From NCBI GenBank assembly GCA_017465225.1, contig JAFTWQ010000006.1:35509-99508 (forward strand): a stretch of 64,000 nt of DNA, given 5' to 3'. The stretch comes from Bacteroidales bacterium (GTDB lineage Bacteria; Bacteroidota; Bacteroidia; Bacteroidales; UBA932). Both the position numbers and the translations under genes were made by a program. The number at the start of each line of letters is the position of its first letter. Position 1 is the stretch's first letter. Below, one piece after another: positions 1,135-29,400 of the stretch. Below the pieces are notes generated by a model that saw only the letters and a program-made list of their open reading frames with translations, was not told the DNA's origin and ran no database searches.

Positions 1135-3315
1135 ATGGAGGGAAATAACGCACTGAATACGGCATGGGAATTTGTGGAGAAGACAGGAAAGAGCGTCTTT
1201 CTGACCGGAAAGGCCGGAACGGGAAAGACCACATTCCTGCGGAAGGTTGTAGAGGAGTCGAGGAAAAGGGTAGTCGTTGTCGCTCCGACGGGCATCGCCG
1301 CCATAAATGCAGGAGGCGTCACGATCCATTCATTCTTCCAGCTTCCGCTGCATCCTTTCATCCCCGGAGCTAAGATCGAGTCCAAATTTGCATTCAGCAA
1401 GGAAAAGAGAAGCATAATAAAGACCATGGACCTGCTCATCATTGATGAGATAAGTATGGTGCGCAGTGACCTCCTTGATGCGGTGGATTCCGTGCTCAGA
1501 CGTTTCCGCAACCGTTTCAAGCCCTTCGGCGGCGTACAGCTTCTGATGATCGGCGATCTTCAGCAGCTGACTCCGGTAATAACCGATGAGGAGATCCAGC
1601 TCCTAGCCCCATATTATTCAAACCCGTACTTTTTCGGCAGCCGCGCCTTGAGTCAGGTCGATTATGTGACCATAGAGCTGAAGGAAGTGTACCGCCAGCA
1701 GGATGATGCATTCATTTCCATCTTGAATTCCGTGCGCTGCGGCAGACCTTCGCCAGATGTGATCCGTGCATTGAACCAGCGGTATGACCCCAATTTCATC
1801 CCGTCATCGGATGAGGGCTATATCCGTCTTACGACCCACAACAACATAGCAAACAGCTACAACGAGCAGCAGCTCGACATGATCGATGAGCCGATCCATT
1901 GCTTTGATGCTGTGATTGACGGCAACTTCCCGGAATATTCTTACCCTACCGAAGCACGGCTTGAACTCAAGGTCGGGGCACAGGTCATGTTCGTGAAGAA
2001 TGATCCTTCGGCGGAACGTCGTTATTTCAATGGAAAGATCGGCGTCGTGACGGATTTCTATGAAGAATACATCCTTGTGCAATGTCCGGGAGATGATGAG
2101 AAGATAGCCGTTGAGCCTCTTGAATGGGAGAACTGCAGGTATGTCATCAATGAGCAGACGCAGGAGATGGAGACCGAAGTGGTGGGTATCTTCAAGCAGT
2201 ATCCATTGAGGCTTGCATGGGCCATCACTATCCATAAAAGCCAGGGCCTTACATTCGACAAGGCCATAATTGATGCCGCCTCTTCCTTTGCATCAGGGCA
2301 GGTTTATGTGGCCTTGAGCCGCTGCCGCACTCTTGAGGGAATGGTGCTGGCGACTCCATTGCGTCAGGATGCCGTGATTACGGATCATAGGGTGGATGAC
2401 TACATTGACGGGCAGGAGGAAGCTGCGCAGCGTAGTGTAGCCCGGCTTGAGTCCATAAAGGAGGAATATTATAAGGAACTTCTTGGGGAACTGTTTGATT
2501 TCAAGGGACTTGCCTCTCTTCAGAAAAGAATGCTGGGAATCTGCATGGAGTTCCCTTCAGGCACGGTCGTAGGCCTCGCACAGAAACATAACGATATTCT
2601 GAATTCGTTGAATGAGACTGTCGTGCCGGTAGGCGCGAAATGGCAGAGGCTGATAATGCAGAAGCCATATCAGGAGGTCTCTTCGCAGGAGTTCAGCGCG
2701 AGGGTGAAGAACGGATGTGCGTATTTCCTTTCGGAGCTTGACGGCATGTATGGTGATTTCCTTGACAAGACCAGGGACATCAAGGCCGAGAACAAGGAAC
2801 TGGTGAAGCGCTATGGAAATGTCTGGAATGATCTGGATATGGAGCTTTCAGGCATCAGGATACTCCTGAAGGCCATGTCGGCTGTGCCGTTCTCTACTGA
2901 AGCCTATCTCAGGGAGCGTCAGATTGCGGTGTTCGAGGCATCGGGATTCGTACCAAAAGAACTGAAGACTCCGAAATCCTCAAAGAAGCCGGCATCCAAG
3001 CCACAGAAGGAAAAGAAGGAAGACACGAAGGTGACTACCTTCAAGCTTTACAAGCAGGGTCTTTCAGTAAAGGAGATTTCCAAGGAACGTGATCTCAATC
3101 AGCAGACTATTGTCCGCCATCTTGCCCATTATGTTGCGAAAGGAATGATTTCAGTGGAAGATCTTGTTCCATCCTCTAAAGTAGATTCCATCCAGGAAAT
3201 CATTTCCGGCCTCGGCTCAGTAAAAAGCCTTTCAGCCATCAAGGAAGCCTGCCCTTCCGACATCACCTATCAGGACATCACCCTCGTCATCGCCGCCATG
3301 GAATCCCAAGCCTGA
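1135..3315 (+). CDS. PIF1/RecD-like superfamily 1B DNA helicase with C-terminal helix-turn-helix
   Basis: This is probably a 5'-3' DNA helicase of the PIF1/RecD2 type. It has Walker A GKAGTGKT at residues 25-32, Walker B IIDE at 102-105, a motif V-like AITIHKSQG near 363-371 and the following YVALSRC. Middle residues 480-610 are helical and may hold an HRDC-like module. A lysine-rich linker near 615-632 leads to a helix-turn-helix at 632-680 (LSVKEISKERDLNQQTIVRHL) resembling the HTH found at the end of RecQ-type helicases. The ATG at 1135 follows AGGAGG at good spacing. Its 3' end overlaps the convergent shikimate kinase gene by 29 bp. The biological substrate is not known from sequence. Confidence 0.88.
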   Translation: MEGNNALNTAWEFVEKTGKSVFLTGKAGTGKTTFLRKVVEESRKRVVVVAPTGIAAINAGGVTIHSFFQLPLHPFIPGAKIESKFAFSKEKRSIIKTMDLLIIDEISMVRSDLLDAVDSVLRRFRNRFKPFGGVQLLMIGDLQQLTPVITDEEIQLLAPYYSNPYFFGSRALSQVDYVTIELKEVYRQQDDAFISILNSVRCGRPSPDVIRALNQRYDPNFIPSSDEGYIRLTTHNNIANSYNEQQLDMIDEPIHCFDAVIDGNFPEYSYPTEARLELKVGAQVMFVKNDPSAERRYFNGKIGVVTDFYEEYILVQCPGDDEKIAVEPLEWENCRYVINEQTQEMETEVVGIFKQYPLRLAWAITIHKSQGLTFDKAIIDAASSFASGQVYVALSRCRTLEGMVLATPLRQDAVITDHRVDDYIDGQEEAAQRSVARLESIKEEYYKELLGELFDFKGLASLQKRMLGICMEFPSGTVVGLAQKHNDILNSLNETVVPVGAKWQRLIMQKPYQEVSSQEFSARVKNGCAYFLSELDGMYGDFLDKTRDIKAENKELVKRYGNVWNDLDMELSGIRILLKAMSAVPFSTEAYLRERQIAVFEASGFVPKELKTPKSSKKPASKPQKEKKEDTKVTTFKLYKQGLSVKEISKERDLNQQTIVRHLAHYVAKGMISVEDLVPSSKVDSIQEIISGLGSVKSLSAIKEACPSDITYQDITLVIAAMESQA

Positions 3316-3970
3316 TTATGGTTTCGGCGATTTCGTCGATGGTTTTGCCGTCGGTGTCGATGATTATATGGGCAGTAGATTCATATGTGGCAGAACGCCG
3401 CTCCATAAGTCCTGATATCCTATCTCTCAAGGATTCTCCCAGCAGCATCGGACGATTAGCTGTCTCTCCTTCCAGATGGCTGACGAGTGTCTCAACAGAT
3501 GCCTTCAGGTATATGCATATGGTTCCGTTTTGCACGATGTCAGCACATTCACGGGTCATTACAGTTCCTCCGCCCAATGCCAACACCATTTCAGCTTTCT
3601 CAAATGGTACATCATTATCTATGCTTTGCGTTGTTTCTGATGATTCTGTCGGGAGAGCAGAGGTGTCTCGGACGTTCGCTTCGCTCACCCCACCACTTCG
3701 CTTCGCTTGTGGTCCCCCCGCTTCCGTGCCGCGGGTGGCACGGTCCTCAATCACCTCATGCCCTCCCGACAGAATAGAGCCAAGCCTCTCTGCTTCAATC
3801 GTCCTGAAACCAGCCTCTCCCTTTTCAGCAAAGATCTCCGGAATACTCTTTCCGGCCCATGCTTCAATCTCCTCATCAAGATCCATAAAAGGACAGCAGA
3901 GCAGCTCCGAGAGTCTCCTCCCGACACTGCTCTTGCCGCATCCCATGAATCCTGTCAATGATATTATCAT
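3287..3970 (-). CDS. aroK: Shikimate kinase with in-frame palindromic insertion
   Basis: AroK phosphorylates shikimate with ATP in chorismate synthesis. Walker A GFMGCGKSS is at residues 7-15, the shikimate-binding DLDEEIE at 30-36, FR at 55-56, ALGGGTV at 131-137 and the lid RPMLLG after that. The family is usually about 170-180 residues; this one has 227. The excess lies between the helix ERLGSIL and the strand MVLALGGG: residues 66-110 are encoded by a 133-bp palindromic element (3643-3775). Reading frame and all catalytic motifs continue on both sides, so this is an insertion rather than a broken gene. The ATG overlaps the parC stop by one base (TGATG), which suggests translational coupling. 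It is the last gene of a minus-strand cluster. Confidence 0.9.
   Translation of the reverse strand: MIISLTGFMGCGKSSVGRRLSELLCCPFMDLDEEIEAWAGKSIPEIFAEKGEAGFRTIEAERLGSILSGGHEVIEDRATRGTEAGGPQAKRSGGVSEANVRDTSALPTESSETTQSIDNDVPFEKAEMVLALGGGTVMTRECADIVQNGTICIYLKASVETLVSHLEGETANRPMLLGESLRDRISGLMERRSATYESTAHIIIDTDGKTIDEIAETIIRLGIPWRR
3643..3775. repeat. 133-bp palindromic element inside aroK
   Basis: The outer arms ATTCTGTCGGGAGAGCA (3643-3659) and TGCCCTCCCGACAGAAT (3759-3775) are inverted repeats matching at 16 of 17 positions. Between them lie smaller hairpins: GTGCC...GGCAC near 3726-3741, and a CACTTCGCTTCGCTTGTGG stem near 3702-3720. The element has no internal stop in the aroK frame and encodes residues 66-110. 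Its composition (Ser, Gly, Thr, Arg, Ala) differs from the enzyme core. It resembles a REP/MITE-like unit or the Rickettsia palindromic elements that sit in coding genes. No second copy of the outer arms was noticed in this window. Confidence 0.8.
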
Positions 3971-29352: not shown

Positions 29353-29400
29353 TAAATCAAAGCCTTCCTGCACATTTAAGTGCAGGAAGGCTTTGATTTA
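29353..29400. terminator. Perfect 21-bp inverted repeat after groEL
   Basis: TAAATCAAAGCCTTCCTGCA plus C (29353-29373) is exactly complementary to 29380-29400 around the loop ATTTAA. It is a strong stem directly after groEL. The T tract is short, so it may act as an mRNA-stabilising structure as well as a terminator. Confidence 0.75.

What the first reader, a model, noticed from the sequence alone, without database searches (positions are those of the whole stretch)
3643..3775. Palindromic element inserted in frame in shikimate kinase
A 133-bp element with 17-bp outer inverted arms (one mismatch) and internal hairpins lies inside aroK, and the reading frame runs through it with no stop. It adds residues 66-110 between the helix after FR and the strand leading to ALGGGTV. 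All kinase motifs on both sides remain. The protein is about 50 residues longer than the family norm. Rickettsia palindromic elements do the same in coding genes; I know of no described Bacteroidetes equivalent, though I cannot search.
Basis: partly seen in the sequence, partly recalled or inferred. Interest (0 to 1): 0.8.

Follow-up and report, generated by a model that had tools for sequence, protein, structure and literature searches.

The report
Palindromic selfish DNA inside bacterial genes
A roughly 130-base hairpin-forming DNA element sits in frame inside a shikimate kinase gene and belongs to an apparently undescribed repeat family that litters housekeeping genes of gut Bacteroidales, much as palindromic elements do in Rickettsia.

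Summary
Window 3643-3775 has 17-bp inverted arms (one mismatch) inside aroK, open in frame throughout. It is one copy of a dispersed family. A covariance model finds copies in 28 of 30 genomes of this uncultured Bacteroidales genus, up to 49 per genome and 16 in this one; outside it, in 3 of 149 other genera sampled. The aroK loop is empty in several sister species, and in five others holds family members in the opposite orientation. Copies also sit in frame in recG, rsmF, dnaX, truB, miaA, RNase R and others, in either orientation.

The ~70-nt core has two hairpins and a covarying H-type pseudoknot. The flanking arms are complementary but differ from site to site. Copies with alike cores in one genome mostly have unrelated arms. 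At RNase R and gltD, orthologous arms change on both sides together; at a SpoU-methylase site most changes are one-sided. So arms belong to the site and cores are shared. Template switching plus movement or exchange of cores is my best explanation; the mobiliser is unknown. It works like Rickettsia palindromic elements but is not one of them: a new variant of a known kind.

The parts
3287..3970 (-). aroK (shikimate kinase) carrying the insert; 227 aa; the only match at E <= 1e-15 in this assembly (about 78% complete)
   Evidence: ORF; Pfam SKI 8e-40; single match in G000
3643..3775 (.). whole palindromic element (133 bp), in frame, codes residues ~66-110 of AroK
3643..3673 (+). left arm (site-specific); outer 17 nt 3643-3659 pair with 3759-3775 with one mismatch
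3743..3775 (+). right arm, complementary to the left arm with small bulges
3674..3742 (-). conserved family core (model R1 hit 3666-3750 on the minus strand, 80 bits, E 2.5e-22; this copy is one of the 30 the model was built from)
3674..3688 (-). hairpin P2; on the minus strand a GCGAAGC hairpin with GAA triloop
3693..3712 (-). hairpin P3; CCAC/GTGG stem, GCGAAGC hairpin on the minus strand
3717..3735 (-). pseudoknot stem S1: 3717-3721 CCCGC with 3731-3735 GCGGG
   Evidence: covariation
3725..3742 (-). pseudoknot stem S2: 3725-3730 CGTGCC with 3737-3742 GGCACG
   Evidence: covariation

Best explanation
It is one copy of a dispersed, selfish, protein-coding palindromic repeat family of a Bacteroidales genus. 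Shown: a ~70-nt folded core with a covarying pseudoknot is present in many copies per genome. Copies lie in frame and without stops inside housekeeping genes, in either orientation, so the genes appear to be translated through them. Most sites have their own inverted arms; at some orthologous sites the two arms have changed together, and the core is reversed between related species. Inferred: selection in essential genes keeps only in-frame, stop-free insertions. DNA-polymerase template switching between the arms helps to keep them complementary and can flip the core, while cores are copied into sites or exchanged between sites by gene conversion, so they stay alike within a genome. Less certain: the element is recognised and moved as folded single-stranded DNA (minus strand, GNA triloops), possibly by Y1-type HUH transposases acting in trans. 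Effect on AroK: a loop of ~45 residues added between the FR helix and the strand before GGGT, probably at the surface and tolerated.
For: Copies: 28 of 30 genus genomes, 0-49 each, 16 in G000. Exact core 32-mer in 37 stretches, all titled Bacteroidales or Bacteroidia; 20 of the 37 titles name a ruminant or horse. aroK: 6 species with the element among 41 loci scanned; empty loops. Twenty host proteins spanning 25 copies have Pfam matches on the ORF strand; the element runs with the gene in 12 and against it in 13. recG: close relative G008 (91% and 89% aa identity in the flanks) has a short loop, as do 26 of 30 loci read; the model hits only G058 and G015. RNase R: 9 of 32 loci have it at this site. 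Pseudoknot: 97.8% of 270 cells paired, covariation score 0.341 against 0.105 +/- 0.018 shuffled and at most 0.059 slid. Arms: 78 of 92 distinct copies score >= 9 for arm pairing; flanks mixed between copies reach at most 8. Compensated arm changes: 6 with 0 one-sided at RNase R (L270-L162), 7 with 2 one-sided at gltD. G058: 24 pairs with core score >= 0.9 have mean outer-arm similarity 0.21 against 0.18 for pairs with dissimilar cores. Core reversed at recG between G058 and G015 with arms alike by eye, and at RNase R in L272 and L276 against the others. Core less diverged than flank in all 24 orthologous comparisons at 6 sites. Template switching homogenises arms and inverts spacers (PMC8604942, abstract).
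Against: No transposition event was seen: no strain-level empty/filled pair was available and no target-site duplication was found. Over the 24 overlapping orthologous comparisons one-sided arm changes (125) outnumber compensated ones (41), and compensated ones exceed one-sided ones in only 5 of 24; the SpoU-methylase, trmB and truB sites mainly show one-sided change. A base bulged from the left arm 12-17 nt from the core recurs in 42 of 78 copies; template switching should erase it, so some structural constraint must act too. Among the 24 G058 pairs a few do have alike arms (up to 0.71), and two G004 copies share identical arms in different flanks (the second lies at a contig end), so arms can sometimes travel. 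No family copy lies within about 2 kb of 27 Y1 genes (32 loci), and genomes without a Y1 match still hold up to 11 copies. In the pseudoknot test two weaker measures are unremarkable: pairs with a change on both sides (4; reached by 105 of 500 shuffles) and further pair types (9; 21 of 500); 4 of 9 pairs never vary. Outer-arm GC follows flank GC (Pearson 0.42, p 2e-4; Spearman 0.27, p 0.017; 75 copies), which fits locally derived arms. Translation and enzyme activity were not tested.
Confidence: 0.72

Rival explanations
1. Inverted target duplication: only the core inserts, and one arm is the native target while the other is an inverted copy made during insertion.
For: Outer-arm GC follows flank GC. 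In AroK the outer 6 nt ATTCTG encode I-L in register with I-L or similar residues of relatives. At RNase R the arm starts inside or next to the conserved I-I-E codons in L270, L162 and L171. At the rluA-like site the left outer arm has the length of the loop of G015. Alike cores with unrelated arms. The alignments were read by eye.
Against: At recG both arms lie inside the insertion, flush with a native loop that is only a few residues long in 26 of 30 loci. At the EttA-esterase intergenic site the closest relative G339 has neither arm, although a deletion there cannot be excluded.
Confidence: 0.2
2. A functional structured RNA (regulatory element, ribozyme or intron-like unit) rather than selfish DNA.
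For: Pseudoknot stems covary and P2/P3 stems differ in sequence while staying paired. Cores are less diverged than flanks in all 24 comparisons, e.g. 0 of 69 against 15 of 48 and 0 of 69 against 14 of 82 differences.
Against: Both orientations relative to the gene are about equally common (12 and 13). Different host genes in different species. ORFs stay in frame, which splicing would not require. No Rfam match in the element at E <= 1 in 12 loci. Most C-G-closed triloops on the minus strand are GNA (71 of 93), a DNA rather than RNA favourite (recalled).
Confidence: 0.1
3. A retroelement-like repeat moved by a reverse transcriptase in trans.
For: Structured core, many copies.
Against: RVT_1 is not found in 19 of 30 genomes at E <= 1e-5, including G016 (98% complete, 39 copies) and G023 (97%, 38 copies), and the less complete G027 (49 copies) and G000.
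Confidence: 0.03
4. An ordinary lineage-specific protein loop of shikimate kinase whose DNA happens to be palindromic.
For: The loop between the FR helix and the GGGT strand varies in length among species without elements.
Against: The same DNA core occurs at other sites of this genome and, in relatives, in unrelated genes in both orientations.
Confidence: 0.02

Closest known systems
Rickettsia palindromic elements (RPE; Ogata et al. 2000 and 2002, known here only through passages of the review PMC10969869)
   Same: About 150-bp palindromic repeats inserted in frame in unrelated metabolic or housekeeping genes; several families; some copies outside genes.
   Different: Different phylum. According to the review each RPE encodes a conserved peptide; here both orientations are used. 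Here arms are mostly site-specific while a pseudoknotted core is shared. No sequence comparison with RPE was made.
REP elements with RAYT (Y1) transposases (PMC3733652, start of abstract in a listing)
   Same: Palindromic, many copies; 24 of 30 genus genomes have a Y1_Tnp match (22 over the curated cut-off); a single-stranded DNA fold is plausible.
   Different: REPs are 20-40 bp and extragenic; these span roughly 110-170 bp in most copies and are mostly intragenic, and none lies beside 27 Y1 genes looked at. The Y1 gene of this genome is flanked by its own short palindromes.
Coding palindromes of Nematomorpha mitochondria (PMC6649704, abstract)
   Same: Long inverted repeats kept inside protein-coding genes that are translated.
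   Different: There both arms encode conserved protein and no dispersed core is described in the abstract.
MITEs (review PMC10969869, passages)
   Same: Short non-autonomous repeats with inverted ends.
   Different: The inverted ends are mostly not conserved between copies and no target duplication was found.

Membership tests
Rickettsia palindromic elements | ~100-150 bp palindromic repeat in frame in protein-coding genes, several loci | tested here: met
Rickettsia palindromic elements | conserved peptide encoded by each copy | tested here: not met
   12 of 25 copies in Pfam-verified genes run with the gene and 13 against it, so no single peptide is shared by all
Rickettsia palindromic elements | sequence homology to an RPE family | not tested
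   no RPE sequence was at hand; Rfam gave no match in the element
Rickettsia palindromic elements | host is a Rickettsia | tested here: not met
   all 37 named stretches with the core 32-mer are titled Bacteroidales or Bacteroidia
REP/RAYT elements | 20-40 bp extragenic palindrome | tested here: not met
   47 of 58 copies spanned by an ORF of at least 200 aa and 21 of 26 G058 copies by an ORF; most spans 110-170 bp
REP/RAYT elements | copies flank the Y1 (RAYT) gene | tested here: not met
   0 copies in 32 loci, which are 27 distinct of the 74 Y1 places
REP/RAYT elements | genome encodes a Y1_Tnp protein | tested here: inconclusive
   24 of 30 genomes at E <= 1e-3, 22 over the cut-off; copy number higher with Y1 (p 0.002; p 0.03 in the 14 genomes not chosen for copies), but up to 11 copies without it; relatedness not corrected
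MITE | terminal inverted repeats conserved between copies | tested here: not met
   outer arms mostly unrelated even when cores are alike; two G004 copies are an exception
MITE | target-site duplication | tested here: inconclusive
   none seen at recG or EttA-esterase, but no strain-level empty site

The most novel reading that the evidence does not exclude
A two-part selfish system. The ~70-nt core is a mobile cassette, active as folded single-stranded DNA, that is copied into or exchanged between resident palindromic arms; the arms are site-bound landing pads in coding genes, kept complementary by template switching. That would be a new mode of spread: cassette homing into self-repairing palindromes in genes.
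Probability: 0.18. Interest if true: 0.87.

Novelty: new variant of a known kind. Interest (0 to 1): 0.72.

Why it matters
The passages of the MITE review that I saw present frequent in-frame palindromic insertions as unusual, with Rickettsia as the case. A large family in a gut Bacteroidales genus with more than 400 species in the collection shows that the phenomenon is not tied to obligate intracellular bacteria. The many species give a natural experiment on how DNA invades essential enzymes, how palindrome arms co-evolve, and how proteins tolerate 45-residue insertions.

Tried and rejected
Viral contigs: two degenerate core patterns gave 0 stretches; the first pattern demanded one base too many for this element's own subtype, so the result is weak. 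Rfam: only a sub-threshold snoRNA match outside the element. Target inverted duplication was my working idea for a time; recG and the G339 site spoke against it, so it stays as a rival. Reverse transcriptase: rejected. Y1 transposase: association only, no adjacency. The longest-ORF orientation count (25 with, 22 against, 5 with shorter ORFs, 6 with none, of 58 copies) is unreliable, because in GC-rich DNA the longest ORF can be antisense; I rely on the 20 Pfam-verified proteins, which include orthologous pairs (dnaX twice, trmB twice). The GC correlation used 75 of 92 copies, dropping weak arms and short flanks; the 92 distinct copies include orthologous ones. In G058, 26 copies were read of 36 found, and pairs were made only from copies with arm score >= 8. 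For alignment A1 I passed 30 of the 34 sequences chosen, which itself had left out nested, truncated or odd-length copies. The pseudoknot parse searches for pairing and so leans towards it; the alignment count does not. Structure prediction was not used: a useful alignment would have needed sequences that the tool does not accept.

Full report
Observation. The window holds a 133-bp palindromic segment at 3643-3775 inside the shikimate kinase gene aroK (3287-3970, minus strand), with 17-bp outer arms and one mismatch. The protein is open through it and matches the family on both sides. The solved shikimate kinase 4y0a aligns to residues 3-66 and 120-221, leaving 67-119 as extra. At the thresholds used, three inverted pairs of this size exist in the 64-kb window, and the fold is well beyond shuffles.

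It is one of a family. A BLAST search of the same assembly (about 78% complete) found a second copy at 95% identity over query positions 21-112, with arms that are different but also palindromic. Of 101 genomes (this one and 100 relatives) 23 matched at E <= 1e-3, all in the same genus. A covariance model built from 30 cores found copies at E <= 1e-3 in 28 of 30 genus genomes, 0 to 49 each and 16 in this genome. These 30 were not random: 16 were known to hold copies (15, G372); of the other 14, 13 had no match and G339 was added for its empty site. In an order-wide search with stricter filters 4 of 198 genomes matched at E <= 1e-4: this genome and one genome in each of three other genera, out of 150 genera sampled; the genus member G270 had none. 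An exact 32-base core string lies in 37 stretches of named genomes, all titled Bacteroidales or Bacteroidia, 20 of them naming a ruminant or horse. I believe the genus to be the GTDB genus Cryptobacteroides, but that is recollection, not a result.

Presence and absence at aroK. Several relatives show a short or plain loop (for example G227, G339, G021, G039). In 41 loci scanned with the model (three pairs repeat the same place in G024, G032 and G039, and some may not hold the whole loop), six species carry a family member in aroK: this one, G056, G286, G024, G007 and G026. This species' copy runs opposite to the other five with respect to the gene. G007 and G026 have perfect arms of 30 and 25 bp around similar cores (read).

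Host genes. Twenty proteins spanning 25 copies were scanned against Pfam; each has a family match on the ORF strand. By those matches and by motifs that I recognised they include RecG, an RluA-like pseudouridine synthase, DnaX, RsmF, an RlmI-like methylase, TrmB, a SpoU methylase, a GltD-like reductase, a PrmC-like methylase, TruB, MiaA, RNase R, UvrA and a DsbD-like protein. In at least eight (RecG, GltD-like, RNase R, TruB, SpoU methylase, UvrA, RsmF, the PLD protein) matches lie on both sides of, or across, the insert. The element runs with the gene in 12 of the 25 and against it in 13. The same positions recur: the SpoU methylase in six species, RNase R in 9 of 32 loci, recG in 2 of 30 loci, two further loci having other inserts there. 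RNase R of G008 carries what looks like a remnant, a left arm and first hairpin only (no model hit).

Anatomy. From outside in: arms of about 20-50 nt; a hairpin P2; a hairpin P3 set in conserved ACCCCACC...GGTCCCCCC; then an H-type pseudoknot, S1 CCCGC/GCGGG interleaved with S2 CGTGCC/GGCACG. The stems vary together between subfamilies (CCCGC/GCGGG, CCCTC/GAGGG, CCCGT/ACGGG; best parse in 90 of 92 distinct copies, standard pairs in 86 and 89 of 90 at the two variable S1 positions). On alignment A1, 97.8% of 270 cells pair and 31 cells have changes on both sides (shuffled 9.1 +/- 2.1, 0 of 500 reach it); sliding the partner destroys it; the number of pairs with a double change (4) and of further pair types (9) are reached by 105 and 21 of 500 shuffles, and 4 of 9 pairs never vary. 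On the minus strand, 71 of 93 C-G-closed triloops called in P2 and P3 (of 135 triloops in all, 73 are GNA) are GNA. GNA loops, as in d(GCGAAGC), are known to me as extraordinarily stable DNA mini-hairpins (recalled; one search lists papers that mention them, of which I saw only the listing). Arm mismatches are A.C 52, G.T 28 and other 144, of which T.C or C.T 103; A.C exceeds G.T (p 0.01), which would be wobble pairs on the minus strand. A base bulged from the left arm 12-17 nt from the core recurs in 42 of 78 copies, usually C (32 of 46 such bases at 11-18 nt). These points suggest, but do not prove, that the minus strand is the folded, recognised form. Copies are related, so these counts are not independent.

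How arms and cores evolve. In one genome (G058), 24 pairs of copies have a core score of at least 0.9 (7 of them 1.0) and outer arms on average no more alike than those of 157 pairs with dissimilar cores (0.21 against 0.18); a few pairs do have alike arms, up to 0.71. At orthologous sites arms are inherited, and at some both sides change together: 6 compensated and no one-sided change between L270 and L162 at RNase R; 7 compensated and 2 one-sided between L031 and L167 at gltD; 2 to 4 compensated with 2 to 5 one-sided among three species with another subtype at RNase R. In the SpoU-methylase group one-sided changes prevail (0-3 compensated, 2-13 one-sided per comparison), as at trmB (1 and 5) and truB (0 and 2). 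Summed over 24 overlapping comparisons there are 41 compensated and 125 one-sided changes, so decay also happens. Cores are less diverged than flanks in all 24 comparisons: strikingly at some, 0/69 against 15/48 (RNase R, L271-L275), 0/69 against 14/82 (truB), 2/68 against 25/84 (gltD), 1/70 against 17/82 (L154-L169); less so at others, 12/70 against 13/44 (L270-L162) and 18/69 against 16/52 (trmB). At recG the core is reversed between G058 and G015 while the arms look related by eye; at RNase R the core is reversed in L272 and L276 relative to the other seven.

Interpretation. Template switching of DNA polymerase between inverted repeats homogenises arms and inverts the spacer; this is described in yeast coding genes (PMC8604942, abstract). 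It can account for mirrored arm changes and core reversal without selection on structure, but not for the recurrent bulge. Cores that are alike within a genome while arms are site-bound need a further process: repeated recent insertion with newly formed arms, or gene conversion between cores. The data do not separate these. The simplest form of the first, an inverted copy of the target, is contradicted at recG, where the empty site is short and both arms are inside the insertion, but has support at RNase R and aroK and from GC content.

Mobiliser. Y1_Tnp matches occur in 24 of 30 genomes (22 over the cut-off). Copy number is higher where one is found (p 0.002 for all 30, p 0.03 for the 14 not chosen for copies), without correction for relatedness or completeness. 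None of 32 Y1 loci (27 distinct places of 74) carries a copy, and the Y1 gene here has its own short flanking palindromes. Reverse transcriptases are not found in 19 of 30 genomes, including high-copy near-complete ones.

Comparison with what is known. The review PMC10969869 (passages) describes Rickettsia palindromic elements as ~150-bp repeats that enter ORFs in frame and encode a conserved peptide. The present family works like them but is not one of them: other phylum, no fixed peptide, mostly site-specific arms, pseudoknotted core. Searches of the held library for palindromic elements in coding genes, in Bacteroidetes and under the suspected genus name (listings seen) showed no description of such a family; most subscription papers are not held.

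Noticed in passing
L036, L039, L148 (aroK of G024, G056, G286): A diverged subfamily (GGCCCCCTCCC...GGGGGTGGCAAAATGCC) sits in the same aroK loop; L039's AroK has a second, unrelated repetitive insert further on (...TSLRGAERRGNP...).
   Followed up: partly
G000:C80:102617-103981 (L230:1318-2682): A Y1-type (RAYT-like) gene of this genome is flanked by paired short palindromes containing ACCCACGTGC/GCACGTGGGT, a REP-like arrangement unrelated to the element.
   Followed up: partly
L016, L164, L165, L185 and L071:1525-1577: By eye, some copies are interrupted by other short palindromes inside hairpin P3 or the pseudoknot, i.e. nested insertions.
   Followed up: no
L302, L306 and G576:C18, C56 (another family of the order): In G576 several cores lie in closely spaced inverted pairs, about 50-120 bp apart, unlike most copies of the window's genus.
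   Followed up: no
L303, L307 (G087, another family): Three contigs of G087 begin with a partial core (C10, C13, C23), and L303 and L307 share their flank, suggesting that the element is part of a longer repeated sequence there.
   Followed up: no
L116/L135 (G008, rluA-like gene): A palindrome without the core (CTCCGCGGAAAT.../ATTTCCGCGGAG) occupies the loop where G058 carries the element.
   Followed up: no
window 29353-29400: Perfect 21-bp inverted repeat with a 6-nt loop, probably a terminator-type hairpin.
   Followed up: no
L308 (G000:C25:91210-91293): Another, apparently intergenic copy of this genome with ~21-bp arms, in the same style as G377's intergenic copy (L195).
   Followed up: no
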